Shown here: piece after piece, positions 1 to 29,248 of the stretch
How positions within the stretch are numbered: the first letter of the stretch is position 1
Layout: each line of letters begins with the position of its first letter
From: a virus
IMG/VR virus record: IMGVR_UViG_3300042887_002198
Span: 1 to 45,256 of that record
Length of the DNA stretch: 45,256 bases
Reading direction: 5' to 3' (one strand)
Translations under genes and position numbers: made by a program
Notes under the pieces: model-generated
What the model was told of the DNA's origin: nothing
Database searches by the model: none
Seen by the model: the letters and a program-made list of their open reading frames with translations, nothing else

Positions 1-385
1 CTTCGGTCTGATCTTTGCTTTTGCCGTCAATAATACTAACGGCTTCCATAATTGCAAGATGTACTGCGCGATCCTTACACCACTTTTCAGTGTTGTCCAC
101 TAGCCAATCATAGTCAACACTGGCAGGACTATCAATATCACGAATGCTGCTTAGCACTTCGTGATGGTCATTGCGATTAACATAGTCGCTATTTTGAAAT
201 TCAATGTCTAGGACACTGCTAGTTGGCAGCTTGTTGTACTTGCTGATAAATGACAAGATCAATTCATACAATACTTTATGCTGTCCTTCAAAGTATTCGG
301 GTTTTAAATGAGGAAGCGCTTTGCGCGTAAACATTTCATTTTGTATCAGGTTCTTAATGATTATTTCCTCAAGATTCTTTTGCAT
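1..385 (-). CDS. gp41: gp41 replicative DNA helicase, N-terminal part (runs off the window)
   Basis: The ORF starts at ATG 383-385 and runs off the left edge, giving about 128 residues. The sequence (MQKNLEEIIIKN..., YFEGQHKVLYELI, DYDWLVDNTEKWCKDRA) resembles the N-terminal domain of T4 gp41, the DnaB-type hexameric helicase that unwinds DNA at the fork and works with the primase. Only the N-terminal helical collar is present, so no Walker motifs are visible. It lies directly downstream of the uvsX C-terminal gene and a small ORF, as uvsX-41 do in T4-like phages. It overlaps the preceding ORF by 17 nt, suggesting translational coupling. The assignment rests on recalled similarity (YFE, SWLV.ETEK, RA patterns) and synteny. 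Confidence 0.85.
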   Translation of the reverse strand, partial: MQKNLEEIIIKNLIQNEMFTRKALPHLKPEYFEGQHKVLYELILSFISKYNKLPTSSVLDIEFQNSDYVNRNDHHEVLSSIRDIDSPASVDYDWLVDNTEKWCKDRAVHLAIMEAVSIIDGKSKDQTE

Positions 386-677
386 CGTTGTTTCCAATTT
401 TAAATTCGCTTTGTGATAATAGATGATTTAATACGTCTCCGATATGATTCTTAAATTCAGAGTCTTCGTCTAGCGATTCCTTAAGCAGCCCTTCTGGAGT
501 GCTTTCAATCTTATAGACAAATGAAACCTTCAAGACATCATTTTCTTTGTCCTCAGTGAGGCGGGTGCGTCCATATGTATAGATCACACCCGCCCAACGT
601 CCAGACAATAATTTTATCGAGTATTGATCACTATGTAAATCATTTTCGACAAAAATATAGTCTTTTTTCTCAGTCAT
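369..677 (-). CDS. conserved phage hypothetical between uvsX and gp41
   Basis: About 102 residues starting MTEKKDYIFVEN. The ATG at 675-677 overlaps the stop of the uvsX C-terminal ORF (670-672), so it is probably translationally coupled. An in-frame extension to 752 would lie inside uvsX-C and was not used. The protein is acidic with no membrane segment. It contains a beta-rich stretch (YSIKLLSGRWAGVIYTYG, then VLKVSFVYKIE) followed by a helical acidic tail. It sits between two core replication genes, so a role in recombination or helicase loading is possible, but that is inference from position only. I recognise no named family. Confidence 0.8.
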   Translation of the reverse strand: MTEKKDYIFVENDLHSDQYSIKLLSGRWAGVIYTYGRTRLTEDKENDVLKVSFVYKIESTPEGLLKESLDEDSEFKNHIGDVLNHLLSQSEFKIGNNDAKES

Positions 678-1248
678 CTGTTTGTGTATCAGGCGATTCT
701 TCAAAGGTGATTGCACTCTCAGGAACGCGATCAAGATCAACTTCAACGTCATTCATCATGTCGCGCAGGCCGATGGTATACTTGTTTTTGAGATATTCCG
801 CAAAGTCAGTATTCTTAAATACAGTCTCCCAGAATTCTTTAGTCATGGTTTGAGCAGCACGCAGGTTACCAGTCAACTCAACATCCTTTGCAATGTCCCA
901 TGCTTGGTACCAACCATTCTTTGGCTTGCGAACATAGCCACCAAGAATAGCAATATCCAATAGGCCGCTCCATTTTTGAACGCCACCTTCCCAGCTTACA
1001 CTGATTGGAATTTTACTTTTTTCTTTAACAAAGCGACTCTTTTCTACATTGATTACAAAGTGATAGCCTTGAATTTCAGTACCATCTTTATCTTGTTGGC
1101 GACCAATAATCCAAACATTGTCCGCACTATACATGATGCCGGTGTTATGCGTCACAACACCATTCTTAAGAATATAGTGTTCAGCATCTTTAACGCTAAG
1201 GTCATATACTTTTTGCCGCCCTATTGATTTAATTTCTTTAATTTTCAT
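670..1248 (-). CDS. uvsX-c: UvsX recombinase C-terminal half with N-terminal split-intein C-fragment (IntC-UvsX-C)
   Basis: This 192-residue protein has two parts. Residues 1-35 are a C-intein: the block F/G pattern KVYDLSVKDAEHYILKNG followed by VVTHN ends in the His-Asn typical of intein C-termini, and the +1 residue is Thr. Residues 36-192 (TGIMYSADNVWIIGRQQ..., EKSRFVKEKSK, SGLLDIAI) match the C-terminal part of T4 UvsX, the RecA-family strand-exchange protein. They begin exactly at the conserved GG-TG(V/I)M junction where the N-terminal ORF (2031-2945) breaks. The gene has its own promoter (1257-1285) only 8 nt before the ATG. Trans-splicing with the N-half would give a UvsX of about 368 residues (T4: about 390). 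The trans-splicing activity is inferred; the motifs are directly visible. Confidence 0.92.
   Translation of the reverse strand: MKIKEIKSIGRQKVYDLSVKDAEHYILKNGVVTHNTGIMYSADNVWIIGRQQDKDGTEIQGYHFVINVEKSRFVKEKSKIPISVSWEGGVQKWSGLLDIAILGGYVRKPKNGWYQAWDIAKDVELTGNLRAAQTMTKEFWETVFKNTDFAEYLKNKYTIGLRDMMNDVEVDLDRVPESAITFEESPDTQTDD
1144..1248 (-). other. split intein C-terminal fragment (IntC, 35 residues)
   Basis: Coding segment for residues 1-35 of the UvsX-C ORF. It contains intein block F (VYDLSVKDAEHYILKNGVV) and block G ending in His-Asn before a Thr +1. The length of 35 residues is that of naturally split IntC fragments of the DnaE/gp41-1 type. It begins with its own Met and follows a promoter and an unrelated gene, so it cannot be read through from IntN. 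Confidence 0.92.
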
Positions 1249-1256
1249 TATGTTAT

Positions 1257-1285
1257 ATTATAATATATTTTCTTCTGTTTGTAAA
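1257..1285 (-). promoter_or_regulatory. sigma70-type early promoter of the IntC-UvsX-C gene
   Basis: On the minus strand TTTACA (1280-1285) and TATAAT (1257-1262) are separated by 17 nt. The -10 box ends 8 nt before the ATG, so the predicted transcript starts at or within 1-2 nt of the start codon. No Shine-Dalgarno sequence is present. It lies between the endonuclease stop (1294) and the uvsX-c start. Confidence 0.85.
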
Positions 1286-1293
1286 GGTCTTTT

Positions 1294-1983
1294 TTAAACG
1301 TAATTCCATTTACTCCATTGTGTATGATCGGACTTAATTCGGCGTGATATAACGGCTCTAGTTAAATTTAAAGCATTTACGGCATCTTTAATACAGTCAT
1401 ACTGTATTTCGTTAATCATAATTGATTTTGCACAAGGATTATTTCCACCAGTTCTTTCTTCTGAATATCTCTTAAATAATGCATCGTGCTTTCCTGTATT
1501 ATATACATCTTGAATTTTTGTTTTTCTAATTTTTGCAGCTTCTTCAGACATGTTTAATCGTTGCTTTTTATTCATTTCTGATATTATAGACGGATCTGTA
1601 TTAGATATTCTTTCTTTTACCTTTAAACTAATGTTTTCATTTCTATTCACTATTTCTTCATCAGATAAAGATTCATACCACCCAAACCAACCTTTCCTGG
1701 TAATGCCGTCATAATCATAACCAGTTTCAGGAATTAAATTTGCCCATTCGCTACTTTCAACAACATCATATTTAGCTGAGGCTAAAACAGCGGCATTTCG
1801 CAATTCTTCTTTTGTTTGGTATGTTCCTAATAACTCAGTAAAAATATCTTTGCCATGCGTCTTTATGTGTGACTTCCAGTAATGCCCAGAACCGCTATAC
1901 GATTCATAGTCATCTTTGGAAGTGACGCACAGATATTTAAGACCTGTTATGTTATGCGTTTTTATCATCAATTTAAATGTCAT
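1294..1983 (-). CDS. homing-endonuclease-like protein (GIY-YIG/Seg-like with NUMOD-type C-terminus) inside fractured uvsX
   Basis: 229 residues. The N-terminal region (TGLKYLCVTSKDDYESYSG, GSGHYWKSHIKTHGKDI, then ELRNAAVLASAKYDVVES) resembles the phage Seg/GIY-YIG-related homing endonuclease module with its GSGxYWKxHxxxHG pattern. The C-terminal region has a NUMOD3-like stretch (SEERTGGNNPCAKS) and a NUMOD1-like helix-turn-helix (IKDAVNALNLTRAVISRRI) for DNA recognition. It is a free-standing gene between the two uvsX halves, the layout of fractured genes with split inteins. Composition is more AT-rich than its neighbours, consistent with a mobile gene. It has its own late-type promoter (2006-2013). 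The nuclease family is assigned from motif memory; catalytic residues were not verified. Confidence 0.8.
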   Translation of the reverse strand: MTFKLMIKTHNITGLKYLCVTSKDDYESYSGSGHYWKSHIKTHGKDIFTELLGTYQTKEELRNAAVLASAKYDVVESSEWANLIPETGYDYDGITRKGWFGWYESLSDEEIVNRNENISLKVKERISNTDPSIISEMNKKQRLNMSEEAAKIRKTKIQDVYNTGKHDALFKRYSEERTGGNNPCAKSIMINEIQYDCIKDAVNALNLTRAVISRRIKSDHTQWSKWNYV

Positions 1984-2005
1984 AGGTATGTGTGGTTAAC
2001 ATACT

Positions 2006-2013
2006 TATTTATA
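2006..2013 (-). promoter_or_regulatory. T4 late-type promoter (TATAAATA) of the homing endonuclease gene
   Basis: The minus strand reads TATAAATA at 2013-2006, a perfect match to the T4 late -10 consensus used by gp55. It lies 22 nt upstream of the endonuclease ATG (1983), in the 47-nt gap after the UvsX-N stop. No -35 is needed for gp55-type late promoters. The window does encode a gp55. Confidence 0.75.
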
Positions 2014-2030
2014 CAATTGACGATTTTAAC

Positions 2031-2945
2031 TTAAACCAATACTTTACAGTCTTGAGCAACCACCAAATCTTTAGCTTCAACCCATTGGTCGCCAATCATG
2101 AACTTATGGGTATCACTACAAATGACAGTATGACCGTCTTCAAAGGTAACTTCATAGCATTCGGGCTCACCGTCTTCAAGAGTATCAGGATTCCAGACAG
2201 CAGTAACTTCCTTAGGCCCATCCAATGTTTGAACAGTATCACCTTCAATAAAGTCTTCAACGGCTTTGGTTGTTCCATCAGGCAGAGTAATAAGAGTTCC
2301 AGCAGCAACACATCCTCCGCTAACAATTGACTTAGGGAAAAGTCCGATCTCGAGGTAGGTATGGTTGATTGCAAGCAAGCAAATGTTTTTCATTGTAAGG
2401 TATGGCGTAACCATACGGAACAATCCTTTAAGCGCTTTAGCACGAGTCATGTCGGCAACGCTCTTTTCATTCATTGCATCTTCCAATTCTTTTTTGGATG
2501 CAAGGTTACCAACACTATCAATAACAATAATTACCTTGTCCTTGCGCTCCATTTGCTCAAGTTGATTTACAATATCAAACTTGAGCTCTTCAATATTCTT
2601 GATAGGAATATGCAATACTCGGTTGGTGTCAATACCAAAGCTTTCGAAGTATTGCTGAGGACTACCAAATTCGCTATCATAAAACATAAGGCAAGCATCT
2701 TTATGTTTCTTAAGATATGCACCTGCCATAAGCAATGCAAAGCTGGTCTTAAAGTGCTTTGACGGACCAGCAAGAACGGTAAGGCCGCTGGTCAATCCAC
2801 CGTCAATACTGCCGCTTAATGCGACATTGACCATTGGTACACTTGTGGAGGTGATGTCTTTTTCAGCATAAAAATCGCTGTCAGCCAAGACGTCGGCTTC
2901 TTTAATTCGGCAATTCTTTTTTAGTTTTTCTAGTACAGATGACAT
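2031..2945 (-). CDS. uvsX-n: UvsX recombinase N-terminal half fused to split-intein N-fragment (UvsX-N-IntN)
   Basis: 304 residues. Residues 1-211 are the RecA/UvsX ATPase core: Walker A GPSKHFKT at 60-67 (T4-like GPSKxFK), Walker B VIIVIDSVGNLAS at about 138-150, ending at SIVSGG. Residues 212-304 are an N-intein starting at Cys212 (block A CVAAGTLITLPDG, then block B GHTVICSDTHKFM). The ORF then stops after KVLV. The break falls at the conserved GG-TG motif next to the DNA-binding loop 2, so the N-half alone lacks part of the recombinase and should be inactive until spliced to the 670-1248 product. Its promoter (2967-2995) sits within the end of the methyltransferase gene. Start is ATG 2943-2945. 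There is no obvious Shine-Dalgarno. Confidence 0.93.
   Translation of the reverse strand: MSSVLEKLKKNCRIKEADVLADSDFYAEKDITSTSVPMVNVALSGSIDGGLTSGLTVLAGPSKHFKTSFALLMAGAYLKKHKDACLMFYDSEFGSPQQYFESFGIDTNRVLHIPIKNIEELKFDIVNQLEQMERKDKVIIVIDSVGNLASKKELEDAMNEKSVADMTRAKALKGLFRMVTPYLTMKNICLLAINHTYLEIGLFPKSIVSGGCVAAGTLITLPDGTTKAVEDFIEGDTVQTLDGPKEVTAVWNPDTLEDGEPECYEVTFEDGHTVICSDTHKFMIGDQWVEAKDLVVAQDCKVLV
2034..2312 (-). other. split intein N-terminal fragment (IntN, 93 residues)
   Basis: Codes residues 212-304 of the UvsX-N ORF. Block A starts with the nucleophile Cys (CVAAGTLI). Block B carries the SDTH variant of the TxxH motif, and the fragment ends a short distance beyond (WVEAKDLVVAQDCKVLV). With the 35-residue IntC the reconstituted mini-intein is 128 residues, within the normal size of endonuclease-free inteins. 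Confidence 0.93.
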
Positions 2946-2966
2946 ATATTATTTCGTTGAGATATT

Positions 2967-2995
2967 ATTATAACAGGTTTTTCTTCTTCTGTAAA
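2967..2995 (-). promoter_or_regulatory. sigma70-type early promoter of uvsX-n
   Basis: Minus strand TTTACA (2990-2995), 17-nt spacer, TATAAT (2967-2972). The -10 ends 21 nt before the ATG at 2945, so a short leader of about 14-16 nt is predicted. It overlaps the last codons of the upstream methyltransferase gene. Confidence 0.85.
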
Positions 2996-4239
2996 CTAAA
3001 AAATTCATCAAGTTCATGAGAATTATTTAGCAGCACACGTGTAGGATATTCAACCGTCTTATTCTTATTGCTTTGTTTGGTATAGTTACTTTCACTCCAA
3101 GTAACATCGCCATCAAGATACTTTACTACATTAAGCATCATATCACGAGCTGTACTTACAGGTACATTTTGGCAGATGTGATTAATCTTGGTTTTAAGCG
3201 GGTGCAATGATGCAAGATTAAAGTCTTCAGGCATCTTCATAACACGGAGACAGTCACGTACAGTTGGAAAGCTTTGAGTAAATGGATTAATCATCCAGAA
3301 TGGCAATGCTCCAATCAGACTAGGAATAATACCTTTGACCATAGTAATGCCATGCGCCCAGTAACCCATACCTTTTGCACGTTTAGCGGCCATATCCCGA
3401 GCACGTCCTGCAGTTTTAGTATAACCATTCGCATCCATCCATTCCGATACAACTGTAAGATTATCACCTAAGCCGCCGTCGGCCCAGACAATAAGATTCT
3501 GTGTATCATCCAGGGTGTCATATAGTTCTTTAATATCTTTAGTACCAGTCTTGTGCATGGCGTATGCAGCCCAACCATTGGTATTGGGATCATCTTCATT
3601 GCAAGAGATATTCATTGGATCACCATCAGCATATGCCATATTAAAGATGTTTTCAATGGGTTCTCCAGGAACATTAAACCAACTAAATAGCGGAGCAGAT
3701 GTACTCTTAGTAAAGAAGTAGAATGTGCGGCCGCGCTTTTGAGACAGGCCGTGAAGGCGGCTTTCAGTATAATACAAGTTTAAGCTATACCCATACTTTT
3801 CGCCGATAGCAAACAAACGGTCTGCGACTTTTTTACCCATGTTGCTGTATAAACGTGGAGCATTCTCGCCCCAAAATACTTTAGGACCTACTTTATCAAG
3901 TACATATTCAGCGGTGGTATACAACCATTCATTAACTGCACTATCTGCACTGCTTGCAGTGCTAAGGCTGCTCAAACCAGCACAAGGGCAGGTGGAATTT
4001 ACAACATCAACCGATTCTGGTACATAATCAGGCTGTTTGTCAAGGTGAATATAGTCACCAGTCCATCCTTTTGTGTTGCGGATGTATTGAATGTAGTGAT
4101 CGTCATTGCTTGCAAAGGGACTATATGATAATACGTATTCTGGAAGTTGTCCATCTAGTGCTTCCATGACTCCAAGTGATTCACCGCCAATAAGCGGTAC
4201 GATTGATGCGTATGTGTATTTCTTTTGTGCGTTCTCCAT
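2968..4239 (-). CDS. DNA (cytosine-5) methyltransferase
   Basis: 423 residues. Motif IV is seen as TCPCAGLS with catalytic Cys86 in a Pro-Cys pair. Motif VI is ENAP (Glu125-Asn126) and motif VIII is QKRGR (167-171). The glycine-rich SAM loop is PLIGGESLG at about 15-23. These are the conserved elements of C5-cytosine methyltransferases, which transfer a methyl group from SAM to cytosine in DNA. The C-terminal half would hold the target recognition domain. No restriction enzyme gene lies beside it. It follows the glycosyltransferase gene (stop 4248) by 8 nt, so it is probably co-transcribed with the sugar cluster. This raises the possibility that it works in phage DNA modification rather than as a lone anti-restriction enzyme. 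Confidence 0.88.
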   Translation of the reverse strand: MENAQKKYTYASIVPLIGGESLGVMEALDGQLPEYVLSYSPFASNDDHYIQYIRNTKGWTGDYIHLDKQPDYVPESVDVVNSTCPCAGLSSLSTASSADSAVNEWLYTTAEYVLDKVGPKVFWGENAPRLYSNMGKKVADRLFAIGEKYGYSLNLYYTESRLHGLSQKRGRTFYFFTKSTSAPLFSWFNVPGEPIENIFNMAYADGDPMNISCNEDDPNTNGWAAYAMHKTGTKDIKELYDTLDDTQNLIVWADGGLGDNLTVVSEWMDANGYTKTAGRARDMAAKRAKGMGYWAHGITMVKGIIPSLIGALPFWMINPFTQSFPTVRDCLRVMKMPEDFNLASLHPLKTKINHICQNVPVSTARDMMLNVVKYLDGDVTWSESNYTKQSNKNKTVEYPTRVLLNNSHELDEFFSLQKKKNLL

Positions 4240-4247
4240 AAATTGAT

Positions 4248-5522
4248 TTATAGGACTTTGCCGGGACCCGTAATCTTATTCAATGCAGCTAGCGTAACAT
4301 CATTCAAATGCTCACCAGAATAGTATGATGGCTTTAACATAGTATCAAGAGTATCGCGCAACTTAGTATATGCGTCTGGATTACTTTCAAGATATGCAAT
4401 CTTATCAAATAGGTCTTTACTGTCCTTTACACGCAAGAACTGTGGAGCATTTAAATGGTTTTGTTCATCATAAGTTGGATGCAGGAATGGTATGATTCCA
4501 TAATGAGCCATCTCCCAGAACTTCATGGTGACCCATCCTTTTTTGATAGGAATGCAATAAGTATATTTTACGCGCGGCAGCATGCTTTGCAATTCATGGA
4601 ACGGTAAGCTGCCTTTAAAACGAGAGTCTGTTCCAATAGTACGCTCATCCCATTTGCCATAGATTGCTACATCTTGTACATGGTTAAGAATGGTTTCTTT
4701 CAACAGGTTGTATCGTGATGGTCGCCCCTCATTGAGAACAATCATAAAGTTGATGTCTTTTATACCAGCCGGCTCTGGTATGTCTTCACCAAAGAATGTA
4801 TCCAACGACGAAGTTTCCGTTTCGGCGCTTTGCTTTTCTTTATCTTGTCCAATAAGAAAGATGGTTTCCATTGCACTATAGGTACTGGGAATGGTGTGCA
4901 CTACCGTTTCATTGTCTGTATAGTTTTTACGAACTGTTACACGCGTATCTTCATCATATTGTGACAAGACAATGGTTGGCATATGAATCCAATCGCGTGC
5001 ATTAGGAGGCCAGAAGCGTGGATCATTTACAATGAGAATGTATGGGATGTGGCGATTATCATTCATCCAATCCGTCATGGGTGCAACATATTTGCATAAC
5101 ATTTCAAGAGGACTTGCAACCTCACTAGGGTTACGCATTTTGGTAACCTTAAATGGAATGTTGGTAGTACCGGTTGGACCAGTAAATACAACACCAGCAT
5201 CAAACTTTACATGATTGAGTGCAACATATTCTTTAAGGTATTCTATATTGTGTAATTTACTGTCCATTGGATTGTTCTTTTTCCAATCCACAAACTGCTT
5301 ACCCCAAATGTCAACCACATTACCATTCGCATTGATGCGTTGCTTTTCGCTGCTGCTTAGACGTGAAAAGTCATTGCAACCCAACAGGTAAAATGTAATG
5401 CTAGGATTACGCGCAAATAGGTTTTCATAATACTTGGGCGCTTCGCAGTCACCGCCAATATTCCCCCATGAATTGCGATTAAACAATATGCTCTTGCCAA
5501 TCTTTCCTACATATACATTCAT
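4248..5522 (-). CDS. GT-B-like glycosyltransferase
   Basis: About 424 residues starting MNVYVGKIGKSILFN. The ATG at 5520-5522 follows the TAA of the epimerase gene directly (TAATATG). An upstream in-frame TTG was not used. The C-terminal part (VKYTYCIPIKKGWVTMKFWEMAHYG then IIPFLHP...) has the EMxxxGxIPF pattern of nucleotide-sugar-binding domains in GT-B glycosyltransferases. A similar ELGACGTIPVF stretch occurs in T4 alpha-glucosyltransferase. Donor and acceptor are unknown. It lies between a sugar epimerase and a DNA C5-methyltransferase, so the acceptor could be modified phage DNA or a surface glycan. Family call moderate, substrate unassigned. Confidence 0.65.
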   Translation of the reverse strand: MNVYVGKIGKSILFNRNSWGNIGGDCEAPKYYENLFARNPSITFYLLGCNDFSRLSSSEKQRINANGNVVDIWGKQFVDWKKNNPMDSKLHNIEYLKEYVALNHVKFDAGVVFTGPTGTTNIPFKVTKMRNPSEVASPLEMLCKYVAPMTDWMNDNRHIPYILIVNDPRFWPPNARDWIHMPTIVLSQYDEDTRVTVRKNYTDNETVVHTIPSTYSAMETIFLIGQDKEKQSAETETSSLDTFFGEDIPEPAGIKDINFMIVLNEGRPSRYNLLKETILNHVQDVAIYGKWDERTIGTDSRFKGSLPFHELQSMLPRVKYTYCIPIKKGWVTMKFWEMAHYGIIPFLHPTYDEQNHLNAPQFLRVKDSKDLFDKIAYLESNPDAYTKLRDTLDTMLKPSYYSGEHLNDVTLAALNKITGPGKVL

Positions 5523-5523
5523 A

Positions 5524-6543
5524 TTATCCAATCTTAACGCTGTCGGTATTCAAGTCAACCATGTAGGTTAGAGGATCAATGGCGCCTCGCTCAATTTCTT
5601 TTTCAAGATAGGCAATTGTATCATCAAGTGCAGTTGAGATACTTTTCTTTGGGCACCAGCCAAGCGAGAGCGCCTTGCGAATATCCGCAAATATTTCAAA
5701 TGCTTCACCGTTGATTTCCGGCATAAAGGTATATTCTACTGCATCTGGCACTTCATATCCACGCGCTTTAAGTACACCTGCAACAGCATCACCAATTTCA
5801 AATAGGCTACAACTTTGTCCACGCCCAAGATTGTATGTTTGGCCAATAGTGCGATCATCGGTTAAGCATTGAACGTGAAAAGCATTCACGTCATCAACAT
5901 GAATAAAGTCCCTACGACGTTGGCCATCGCCGAAGATGATTGGGTTGTTACCTCCCATCATGCGAATAGCAAAGCCGGCAAACAGTGGAGGCACAGTGCG
6001 CTTGTAGTCTTGAATAGGCCCTGCAATATTAAAGTAACGCAATGCAGTATAGCGCAATCCTTTGGTGCGTGCATAACTTTCAGCAAGCAATGCAACAGCT
6101 GCTTTAGTGCTTGCATACACTGTAGTAGGATCGCTTTGGCCTTCAAAATAACCATCTTGTAGCAGCTCACAATTTTCATATACTGCACTCGTCTCAGAGA
6201 AAACAACGCGTGGGCAACCGGCTGCAAGCAGTGCATCAAATACATTTACACTACCAACAATGTTGTTGTCAACCGCACTTGATGGGTCACGATGGCAATC
6301 ATAAATGCTAACCAAGCCTGCAAAGTGAAAAGTAATGTCAGGTTTGATATTGCCAATGTGTAAATGCATTGCTTCACGGTCACGAATATCGCATTTGAAA
6401 AAACGGACACGATCATGCACTTCAGGGATATATGAGCCGTGCGCAAGATTGTCAATTACAATCACATCATGCCCTAGTTCTAACAAATTAGGAATAAGAT
6501 TTGTTCCGACGAAGCCGCAGCCTCCAGTAATAAGTATCTTCAT
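5524..6543 (-). CDS. NAD-dependent sugar-nucleotide epimerase/dehydratase (GalE-like)
   Basis: 339 residues. The Rossmann motif GGCGFVGTN lies at residues 7-15 after MKILIT. The catalytic pattern is YASTK at about 140-145, preceded by a Ser/Thr-rich SETSAVYE segment. RRDFIHVDDV and YNLGRG are typical of the extended SDR family that acts on UDP- or GDP-sugars. Start ATG 6541-6543 was chosen because MKILITGG is the canonical N-terminus; the longer frame would overlap the cytidylyltransferase gene. It likely makes or converts the donor sugar for the adjacent glycosyltransferase. Exact substrate cannot be read from sequence. Confidence 0.88.
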   Translation of the reverse strand: MKILITGGCGFVGTNLIPNLLELGHDVIVIDNLAHGSYIPEVHDRVRFFKCDIRDREAMHLHIGNIKPDITFHFAGLVSIYDCHRDPSSAVDNNIVGSVNVFDALLAAGCPRVVFSETSAVYENCELLQDGYFEGQSDPTTVYASTKAAVALLAESYARTKGLRYTALRYFNIAGPIQDYKRTVPPLFAGFAIRMMGGNNPIIFGDGQRRRDFIHVDDVNAFHVQCLTDDRTIGQTYNLGRGQSCSLFEIGDAVAGVLKARGYEVPDAVEYTFMPEINGEAFEIFADIRKALSLGWCPKKSISTALDDTIAYLEKEIERGAIDPLTYMVDLNTDSVKIG

Positions 6544-20561: not shown

Positions 20562-21746
20562 TTAGTCCTTGTAAGGATCATACACATCGGCACCTGCCAT
20601 AGCAACGCCTAACGGCTTAAGCTGATGTATGATTTGCACAGTATCTCCTTGAGCAGCCAACACATCGGTCAATCGTTTGTAAGCATGAGGACTTTCATCA
20701 CAGCCTCCACCACGCAGCTCAACATTTGCATCGGCTAGCCAAGTGTCCATCATGTGCTGTGAAACTTTACCTTCACTGACACGAACTTTTTGCCCACCTT
20801 TCCATTTGCATTTGCCGGCGGCTTCAGTGCGGCTCATAACACGACCAGCACCATGAACGGTTGAATAGAGTGCGGCCGCCGACAAGTCGCTTTGCGCTCC
20901 TTGCAAGATAACACTGTTTTCTCCCATGGTACCGCCAACAAATCCTCGTTGCCCTGGCCAAGCTGGCGTTGCACCTTTGCGAACAACCCATAAGTCAACA
21001 CCAGCGTGCTGTTCACGCCAAGCATAATTGTGGTGATTGTGAACTTCATCAATGATGTCAGCCCACAGGATACGTGCAACTTCGGCACACACCCAATCAC
21101 GACCAGCATATGCATAATCGCCAGCAAGTTGCATTGCAGCGATATACTCACGACCAAGATCGGTATGCACATCAAGCAACACTGGATCCACAAGGATTCC
21201 GTCAGTCCCACCACCAGCTTTGATGTAGTGCGAAGCAATTTTGTGACCAAGACCGCGGCTGCCAAAGTGAACGCCAATCCAGATACGCTCTGCTTCGTCT
21301 GCAAAGATGTCAACATAATGGTTGCCACTGCCTACGGTGCCTAATTGACCGCGAGCCATATCTTTAAGAGGACGCAGCATTTCAATGTCATCCCACTGAT
21401 CAGCATCAAACAGTGCATGGTCAACTTTGGTTTTGTTTACACGACCAATACCAAACGAGACTTTTGACACCACTTCATCCATGATGCGTGAAATATCACC
21501 CTTCACATCAGAAAGAGTAGCGTTGGTTAGCACTGCTTTGTTGCCGCAGCCAATGTCAAAACCTACGCCGCTTGGCGAGATGTGGTCACGATAAGCAATC
21601 ACACCGCCCACAGGAACAGCATAGCCTAAGTGATGGTCAGCCATCAGCGCAGCAGCATGTGCACCTTTGCACAAGCAGTTGTCCATTTGATCCACTGCAT
21701 TTTGCAATGGGTCTCCAAATACTGAAATGTTGTTTAAAATTTTCAT
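20562..21746 (-). CDS. rtcB: RtcB RNA-splicing ligase
   Basis: 394 residues. SGVGFDIGCGNKA contains the metal-binding Asp-Cys of RtcB. GQLGTVGSGNHYVDIF is the GSGNH motif, and TVHGAGRVMSRTEA near residue 310 holds the histidine guanylylated with GTP. GVHFGSRGLGH and GGGCDESPHAYK are also typical. RtcB joins RNA 3'-phosphate or 2',3'-cyclic phosphate ends to 5'-OH ends and repairs tRNAs cut by nucleases. Length is slightly below that of E. coli RtcB (408), so it looks complete. Together with cREC and Pth2 it forms a candidate tRNA-repair group. Confidence 0.94.
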   Translation of the reverse strand: MKILNNISVFGDPLQNAVDQMDNCLCKGAHAAALMADHHLGYAVPVGGVIAYRDHISPSGVGFDIGCGNKAVLTNATLSDVKGDISRIMDEVVSKVSFGIGRVNKTKVDHALFDADQWDDIEMLRPLKDMARGQLGTVGSGNHYVDIFADEAERIWIGVHFGSRGLGHKIASHYIKAGGGTDGILVDPVLLDVHTDLGREYIAAMQLAGDYAYAGRDWVCAEVARILWADIIDEVHNHHNYAWREQHAGVDLWVVRKGATPAWPGQRGFVGGTMGENSVILQGAQSDLSAAALYSTVHGAGRVMSRTEAAGKCKWKGGQKVRVSEGKVSQHMMDTWLADANVELRGGGCDESPHAYKRLTDVLAAQGDTVQIIHQLKPLGVAMAGADVYDPYKD

Positions 21747-28579: not shown

Positions 28580-28604
28580 ATTTTTATGTTATACTATATT
28601 TATA

Positions 28605-29240: not shown

Positions 29241-29248
29241 TATTTATA
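29241..29248 (-). promoter_or_regulatory. late-type promoter candidate (TATAAATA) upstream of regA
   Basis: Minus strand TATAAATA at 29248-29241, in the 18-nt gap between the gp62 stop (29249) and the regA ATG (29230). Exact match to the T4 late -10; the predicted leader would be very short. It could be chance in AT-rich DNA. Confidence 0.45.

What the first reader, a model, noticed from the sequence alone, without database searches (positions are those of the whole stretch)
670..2945. Fractured uvsX: recombinase split by a trans-splicing intein with a free-standing endonuclease gene between the halves
The ORF at 2031-2945 encodes UvsX residues 1-211, then a Cys-started N-intein (CVAAGTLITL..., block B ...SDTHKF) and stops. 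The ORF at 670-1248 starts with a C-intein (KVYDLSVKDAEHYILKNG, VVTHN) followed by Thr and the rest of UvsX. The extein ends SIVSGG and TGIMYSAD rejoin into the T4-like GG-TG(V/I)M sequence. A homing-endonuclease-like gene separates them. Family knowledge: such fractured genes with split inteins are known from phage helicase and nucleotide-reductase genes in marine metagenomes. A recombinase split at the DNA-binding loop 2 means the strand-exchange enzyme cannot work until both halves meet. The 128-residue intein with Cys1 and Thr+1 may be a useful new split intein.
Basis: partly seen in the sequence, partly recalled or inferred. Interest (0 to 1): 0.95.

Follow-up and report, generated by a model that had tools for sequence, protein, structure and literature searches.

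The report
Phage recombinase split by trans-splicing intein
In this phage the gene for a key DNA-recombination enzyme is broken in two by a DNA-cutting 'homing' gene, and a split self-splicing protein element almost certainly glues the two halves back together; relatives at the same spot show such breaks being colonised, emptied and even healed back into one gene.

Summary
uvsX is split into two ORFs, 2945-2031 and 1248-670 (minus strand). The first ends in a 93-residue N-intein, the second begins with a 35-residue C-intein, and an intact homing-endonuclease-like ORF (1983-1294) lies between. Both intein halves pass curated NCBIfam cut-offs. The splice residues are conserved in about 100 distinct relatives, all at the same codon. 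Near-identical alleles without intein join the exteins exactly. All parts are under purifying selection.

The kind (a 'fractured gene') is already known, and 19 cultured T4-like phages carry the same arrangement, mostly unrecognised. Splicing itself was not tested.

New here is the comparative series at one site. A phage about 99% identical to the window carries a different endonuclease in the same slot, and the window shows a ~43-bp extein co-conversion tract. At least three endonuclease types use the slot. Most loci have a hairpin, many with a T4-late-promoter-like motif, over the endonuclease start. Some relatives have lost the endonuclease. Four have re-fused the halves into a continuous mini-intein, three of them keeping the C-half's start codon. 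This 'healing' runs opposite to the usual cis-to-split story. Best reading: trans-spliced uvsX plus a resident homing endonuclease.

The parts
2313..2945 (-). uvsX-N: N-extein, UvsX residues 1-211 (ends ..SIVSGG)
2034..2312 (-). N-intein (93 aa): Cys1, block B SxxH (SDTH), ends KVLV; stop at 2033-2031
   Evidence: NCBIfam intein_Nterm above cut-off; C1, S66, H69 invariant in 18 relatives
1294..1983 (-). free-standing homing-endonuclease-like gene, 229 aa, divergent Seg-like GIY-YIG with I-TevI-type DNA-binding region
   Evidence: (phrog_314 homing endonuclease 2e-10); dN/dS 0.12-0.15
1144..1248 (-). C-intein (35 aa), block F VYDL, ends VVTHN
   Evidence: NCBIfam intein_Cterm above cut-off; alignment
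673..1143 (-). uvsX-C: C-extein, 157 aa, begins with Thr+1 (TGIMYSAD..); stop at 672-670
   Evidence: Pfam T4_UVSX_C 9.6e-11
2967..2995 (-). promoter-like TTTACA-N17-TATAAT upstream of the N-half
1257..1285 (-). second exact TTTACA-N17-TATAAT, private to the C-half, ending 8 nt before its ATG
   Evidence: kept in L082, L084, L089
2006..2013 (-). TATAAATA, match to the T4 late promoter -10 consensus, upstream of the endonuclease gene
   Evidence: late-like motif found at 39 of 58 related loci
1964..2024 (-). predicted RNA hairpin spanning the TATAAATA and the endonuclease start codon (weak in the window alone, strong in sister loci)
2313..2355 (-). extein co-conversion tract: 12 of 43 bp differ from the intein-free allele L009, none in the ~75 bp before it

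Best explanation
The locus is a fractured uvsX. Shown by sequence: one T4-like uvsX is interrupted at a single codon (GG|TG) by a split class-1-type intein, and a homing-endonuclease-like gene sits between the intein halves. Inferred: the two precursors (UvsX1-211-IntN and IntC-UvsX212-368) are made from separate, same-type promoters, associate through their intein halves, and splice in trans to a normal 368-residue UvsX. The endonuclease cuts intein-free uvsX alleles of co-infecting relatives, and double-strand-break repair copies the cassette in, with short co-conversion of flanking uvsX. Its translation is probably held back early by a hairpin over its start, and it is expressed from a T4-late-like promoter. 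Comparative data at this site show the slot is exchangeable (a different endonuclease in an otherwise ~99% identical phage). They also show that the endonuclease is often lost, and that the broken gene can re-fuse into a continuous mini-intein.
For: Intein halves pass curated cut-offs. Over 99 distinct inserts: Cys1 99/99, upstream GG 99/99, block F Asp 99/99, HN 95/99 (SN in 4), Thr+1 97/99 and Ser+1 2/99. AF2 of the natural continuous relative L183 (62% and 77% identical to the window's IntN and IntC): pLDDT 94.6, best PDB match the gp41-1 intein, E=8.9e-9. Intein-free alleles L009/L010 join GG|TG exactly with 98-99%/92-95% identical exteins. dN/dS: exteins 0.01-0.21, IntN 0.05-0.19, IntC up to 0.06, endonuclease 0.09-0.15. 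Cultured genomes listed show one uvsX place each, so the split copy is the only one detected. Co-conversion tract: window vs L009 12/50 bp differ next to the site vs 31/583 beyond, p=4e-5; vs L082 p=7e-8. Promoter motif on both halves. Hairpins at the endonuclease start: 44 of 58 non-redundant loci at p<=0.05, 36 at p<=0.01; late-like motif in 39 of 58 vs 8.5 expected, matching the known T4 I-TevI/SegB/MobE control (PMC2988022). No group I intron found.
Against: No splicing, cleavage or homing was measured. The endonuclease's GIY-YIG motif is degenerate (YLC, conserved in all four sequences of its family), the SegE match is below the Pfam cut-off, and its AF2 model is poor (pLDDT 43.8). The hairpin in the window itself is not significant alone (24/200 shuffles; z -1.3). 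TATAAATA precedes regA and is not found at gp23 in this window, so its role as a late promoter here is unproven. The window is a 45-kb fragment.
Confidence: 0.9

Rival explanations
1. Gene in pieces without splicing: the two UvsX fragments assemble non-covalently, as for Aeh1 NrdA or the phage-25 43A/43B polymerase, and the intein halves are inert tails.
For: Such split but functional phage enzymes exist (PMC2988022). Four inserts lack the penultimate His (SN).
Against: All catalytic intein residues are kept in about 95 of 99 inserts and both intein halves are under purifying selection. In four relatives the halves are re-fused into one open intein, which would block UvsX unless it splices.
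Confidence: 0.04
2. The interruption is removed at RNA level (group I intron or similar carrying the endonuclease gene).
For: GIY-YIG endonucleases with I-TevI-type DNA-binding regions are classic group I intron residents (one search gives a weak grpIintron_endo match).
Against: No Rfam group I or II match in 1-6000. The IntN ORF ends in a stop and IntC has its own start. The coding sequence flanking the insert is intein, and IntC carries its own promoter.
Confidence: 0.01
3. Decaying relic: uvsX inactivated by endonuclease insertion.
For: The element is selfish, and some relatives carry partial endonuclease remnants.
Against: dN/dS of both exteins is far below 1 (0.03 and 0.11-0.16 with the nearest relatives). 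The split uvsX is the only copy detected in the cultured phages. The arrangement occurs across several Straboviridae genera.
Confidence: 0.02
4. About the series at this site: the continuous (cis) mini-inteins are the ancestral state, and the split form arose by endonuclease insertion into them.
For: Standard view of split-intein origin (own knowledge). The DNA alignment alone does not fix direction, and the tree is poorly resolved.
Against: Cis forms are 4 scattered tips among 95 split ones. L182's intein is identical to split ones within a 97%-supported clade. Three of four cis inteins keep a Met exactly at the C-half start, and L182-184 also its Shine-Dalgarno-like GAGGAAATTATG. Partial endonuclease deletions occur in the same clade. 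An older cis ancestor of the whole family is not excluded.
Confidence: 0.12

Closest known systems
Fractured genes with split inteins and free-standing endonucleases (Dassa et al. 2009, NAR, doi 10.1093/nar/gkp095; not held, so known to me from memory and from citing papers)
   Same: Phage DNA-metabolism enzyme broken in two, IntN at the end of the first ORF, IntC at the start of the second, endonuclease gene between.
   Different: The window's endonuclease is GIY-YIG-like rather than of the Vsr-like family that (from memory) that paper describes; PD-(D/E)XK-like ones occur in relatives L286 and perhaps L220. I could not check whether UvsX is among their enzyme types.
gp41-1 split intein of phage gp41 helicase
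   Same: Best fold match and a clear sequence match; same short split design and SxxH block B.
   Different: About 22-24% identity; different host gene and site; Thr+1 here.
Uncharacterised UvsX halves in cultured T4-like phages (TG1, Pm5461, HY03, ELT1, CF-SP2, Thanatos-1 and others; PHROGs 8337 and 18112)
   Same: Same site, homologous split intein, a gene between the halves in the 11 carriers read in detail.
   Different: IntN 47-59% identical; different endonucleases; annotated as two recombination proteins, uvsX_1/uvsX_2 or hypothetical.
Aeh1 mobE / T4 I-TevI, segB expression control
   Same: Late promoter placed so that only early transcripts form a hairpin that hides the endonuclease start (PMC2988022).
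   Different: Here the control element begins just after the stop codon of an N-intein ORF; function not shown.
MIJ3 PolB split intein with HNH endonuclease (PMC6892783)
   Same: Split intein plus free-standing endonuclease in a phage replication gene.
   Different: Different gene, endonuclease and intein.

Membership tests
Fractured gene (split intein + free-standing endonuclease) | one conserved enzyme encoded by two separate ORFs | tested here: met
Fractured gene (split intein + free-standing endonuclease) | IntN ends the first ORF and IntC starts the second, at the same extein position | tested here: met
   empty alleles L009/L010
Fractured gene (split intein + free-standing endonuclease) | endonuclease gene between the halves | tested here: met
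Fractured gene (split intein + free-standing endonuclease) | protein trans-splicing restores the enzyme | not testable with these tools
   needs expression or mass spectrometry
Class 1-type intein (Hint) | Cys1, block B (S/T)xxH, block F Asp, penultimate His, terminal Asn, Cys/Ser/Thr+1 | tested here: met
Class 1-type intein (Hint) | Hint fold | tested here: met
   on the continuous relative L183, not on the window's own pair:
GIY-YIG (Seg-like) homing endonuclease | GIY-YIG nuclease domain | tested here: inconclusive
   SegE_GIY-YIG E=0.016, below cut-off; YLC for YIG; full-length 28% to RB16 Seg-like, E about 1e-3
GIY-YIG (Seg-like) homing endonuclease | homing: cleavage of the empty allele and copying-in with co-conversion | tested here: inconclusive
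   co-conversion footprint found; cleavage not testable
Group I intron with endonuclease | group I intron core around the endonuclease ORF | tested here: not met
   no Rfam match

The most novel reading that the evidence does not exclude
One codon of uvsX in T4-like phages hosts a full, reversible cycle: empty gene; split intein with an exchangeable homing endonuclease (HNH, GIY-YIG or PD-(D/E)XK-like); split intein after endonuclease loss; and re-fusion of the halves into a continuous mini-intein, sometimes carrying the fossil ribosome-binding site and start codon of the former C-half. Split inteins would then be a reversible state rather than an end point. The element also sits in the recombinase that T4-type homing uses, so it can spread by that route only if splicing works.
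Probability: 0.7. Interest if true: 0.75.

Novelty: new member of a known kind. Interest (0 to 1): 0.62.

Why it matters
It adds a widespread, well-sampled family to the natural split inteins: about 95 distinct split inserts at one codon, with 19 cultured phages among the carriers. The 93+35-residue design with Cys1/Thr+1 gives many ready-made variants for tool building. More generally, empty, continuous, split-without-endonuclease and split-with-endonuclease alleles occur at one site. In one clade the last three differ by little more than a deletion, so the origin and fate of split inteins becomes directly testable. It also corrects annotation: both halves are filed as separate recombination proteins in databases.

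Tried and rejected
Second complete uvsX in the record: none, but the record is only 45 kb. Group I intron: no match. Campylobacter and RB49-like phages whose UvsX matched into the IntN region: annotated as a single continuous uvsX gene in the two fetched. Structure of the endonuclease: model too poor to use. A fused window intein was not submitted for folding because it is not a sequence of the window; a natural fusion (L183) was used instead. Spurious IntN hits in L027/L253 were gp41-helicase inteins, not uvsX. My motif classifier mis-sorted the window's own endonuclease because of a filter on 'THN'; its class is taken. Hairpin in the window alone is not significant and is only claimed as part of the family pattern. 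Literature: no held paper contains both 'split intein' and 'uvsX'; Dassa 2009 could not be opened.
Full report
Observation. On the minus strand, ORF 2945-2031 encodes UvsX 1-211 followed by CVAAGTLITL...KVLV, and ORF 1248-670 encodes MKIKEIK...VVTHN followed by TGIMYSAD... and the rest of UvsX. ORF 1983-1294 lies between. Pfam gives RecA and T4_UVSX_C above cut-off. NCBIfam gives intein_Nterm and intein_Cterm, both above curated cut-offs. The joined 368-residue extein aligns to T4 UvsX (3IO5) with no gap at the junction.

Same site, many phages. A tblastn survey of fetched loci puts every copy at one codon, between UvsX 211 and 212. In the phage collection 2306 records have a match to the UvsX N-half. 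Twenty-five of these (19 distinct phages, among them Yersinia TG1, Proteus Pm5461 and PM2, Escherichia HY03 and ELT1, Salmonella CF-SP2 and SEA1, Shewanella Thanatos-1) carry a homologous IntN. Eleven were read in detail; all have a gene between the halves. They are annotated as two recombination proteins, uvsX_1/uvsX_2 or hypothetical, and PHROGs 8337 and 18112 appear to be families of the two halves. The cultured carriers listed have only one uvsX place each.

The intein. Over 99 distinct inserts, Cys1 and the preceding GG are universal, the block-F Asp is universal, His-Asn ends 95 (Ser-Asn 4), and the next residue is Thr (97) or Ser (2). The natural continuous relative in L183 folds confidently (pLDDT 94.6) and its best solved match is the gp41-1 intein. 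Sequence searches also find gp41-1 and Npu DnaE. dN/dS is well below 1 for exteins, both intein halves and the endonuclease.

Mobility. L009 and L010 are intein-free alleles with nearly identical exteins and an exact GG|TG junction. The window differs from L009 at 12 of the 50 bp just upstream of the insertion point, with no difference in the next ~75 bp (p=4e-5), and shares that tract with L089, which has the same endonuclease. This is the co-conversion footprint expected of double-strand-break repair (PMC2988022). L082 is 99% identical to the window in the 600 bp upstream of uvsX and 98-99% identical in both exteins, with an identical C-half promoter and IntC. Yet it carries an unrelated-looking 292-residue endonuclease and a diverged IntN. 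The endonuclease slot has therefore been exchanged recently. Exteins of L085/L088 are 93-95% (N) and 83-84% (C) identical to the window's while their inteins are only 46-51% identical, a second sign of horizontal movement.

Endonucleases. By motif and family searches the slot holds HNH-type (about 39 inserts), GIY-YIG-type of at least two kinds (including the window's), and a few PD-(D/E)XK-like enzymes (L286 by Pfam; L220 by a weaker match). The window's own is a divergent Seg-like protein: phrog_314 homing endonuclease at 2e-10 and an I-TevI-type DNA-binding region just below cut-off, and 28% full-length identity to RB16 Seg-like.

Expression. TTTACA-N16/18-TATAAT occurs 12 times on the coding strand of the window and once on the other, mostly just before ORFs. 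One copy precedes the N-half and one precedes the C-half. TATAAATA lies 30 nt before the endonuclease ATG. Across 58 non-redundant loci, 44 have a significant inverted repeat (p<=0.05) at the start of the endonuclease, 39 have a late-like motif (8.5 expected), and in 25 the motif is inside the hairpin. This is the arrangement described for T4 I-TevI, SegB and Aeh1 MobE, where early transcripts hide the start and late transcripts are too short at the 5' end to form the hairpin (PMC2988022). In the window itself the hairpin is weak.

Loss and healing. One family with nearly identical intein DNA shows three states. L185/187/192/193 are split with an HNH gene. L189/190/191 and, by a different deletion, L186 are split with the endonuclease deleted. 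L182/183/184, from three different metagenomes, have lost the IntN stop and the endonuclease so that IntN and IntC are one frame, keeping GAGGAAATTATG (the C-half's Shine-Dalgarno-like sequence and start codon) inside the intein. L224/226, L230 and L270 are three more continuous forms; the first two also keep Met at that point. Continuous forms are four separate tips among 95 split ones, and forms without endonuclease appear many times. The tree is poorly resolved, so only two cis and six endonuclease-less changes are forced. Direction split to continuous is therefore likely rather than proven.

How it most likely works. Shown: anatomy, conservation, selection, empty alleles, co-conversion footprint, endonuclease exchange. 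Inferred: trans-splicing to functional UvsX, cleavage of empty alleles, early silencing and late expression of the endonuclease. Because T4-type homing uses UvsX or host RecA (PMC2988022), the element sits in a gene that its own spread can depend on. This is an inference.

Novelty. The kind is known (fractured genes, Dassa et al. 2009; not readable here, so I cannot exclude that uvsX was in their list). No held paper pairs split inteins with UvsX. The window element is a new member. The within-site cycle, especially re-fusion, is the part a specialist would find surprising.

Noticed in passing
L253:71-2933: The same endonuclease and uvsX-C are followed by a gp41 helicase whose ORF ends in a gp41-type N-intein (..TDTSE|CIFVDEKV..), so two neighbouring replication genes are fractured in one phage. 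The IntN profile also hit the L027 group in the same TDTSE context.
   Followed up: partly
L085, L088, L242, L244 (C-intein): A uvsX split-intein clade ends VVSN instead of VTHN, lacking the penultimate His yet widespread in several contigs.
   Followed up: no
window 34522, 22688, 16377 (also 12344, 10990), minus strand: Several early-type promoters share a nearly identical leader, roughly TATAATAATCT(C/T)GTAAGGCAAACCACTACATTATG, a repeated promoter-leader cassette of unknown role.
   Followed up: no
PHROGs phrog_8337 and phrog_18112; GenBank records: Database families and annotations (uvsX_1/uvsX_2, 'DNA repair protein', 'recombinase', once 'portal protein' for MW883059) appear to be halves of split UvsX: an annotation artefact.
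   Followed up: partly
window 20562-21746: RtcB-type tRNA splicing ligase in a fragment with no tRNA genes.
   Followed up: no
window 29241-29248 and 28597-28604: TATAAATA also precedes regA (translation repressor) and a 307-aa ORF with no PHROG match, while the gp23 start in this window has none within 60 nt; late-promoter usage in this phage is unclear.
   Followed up: partly
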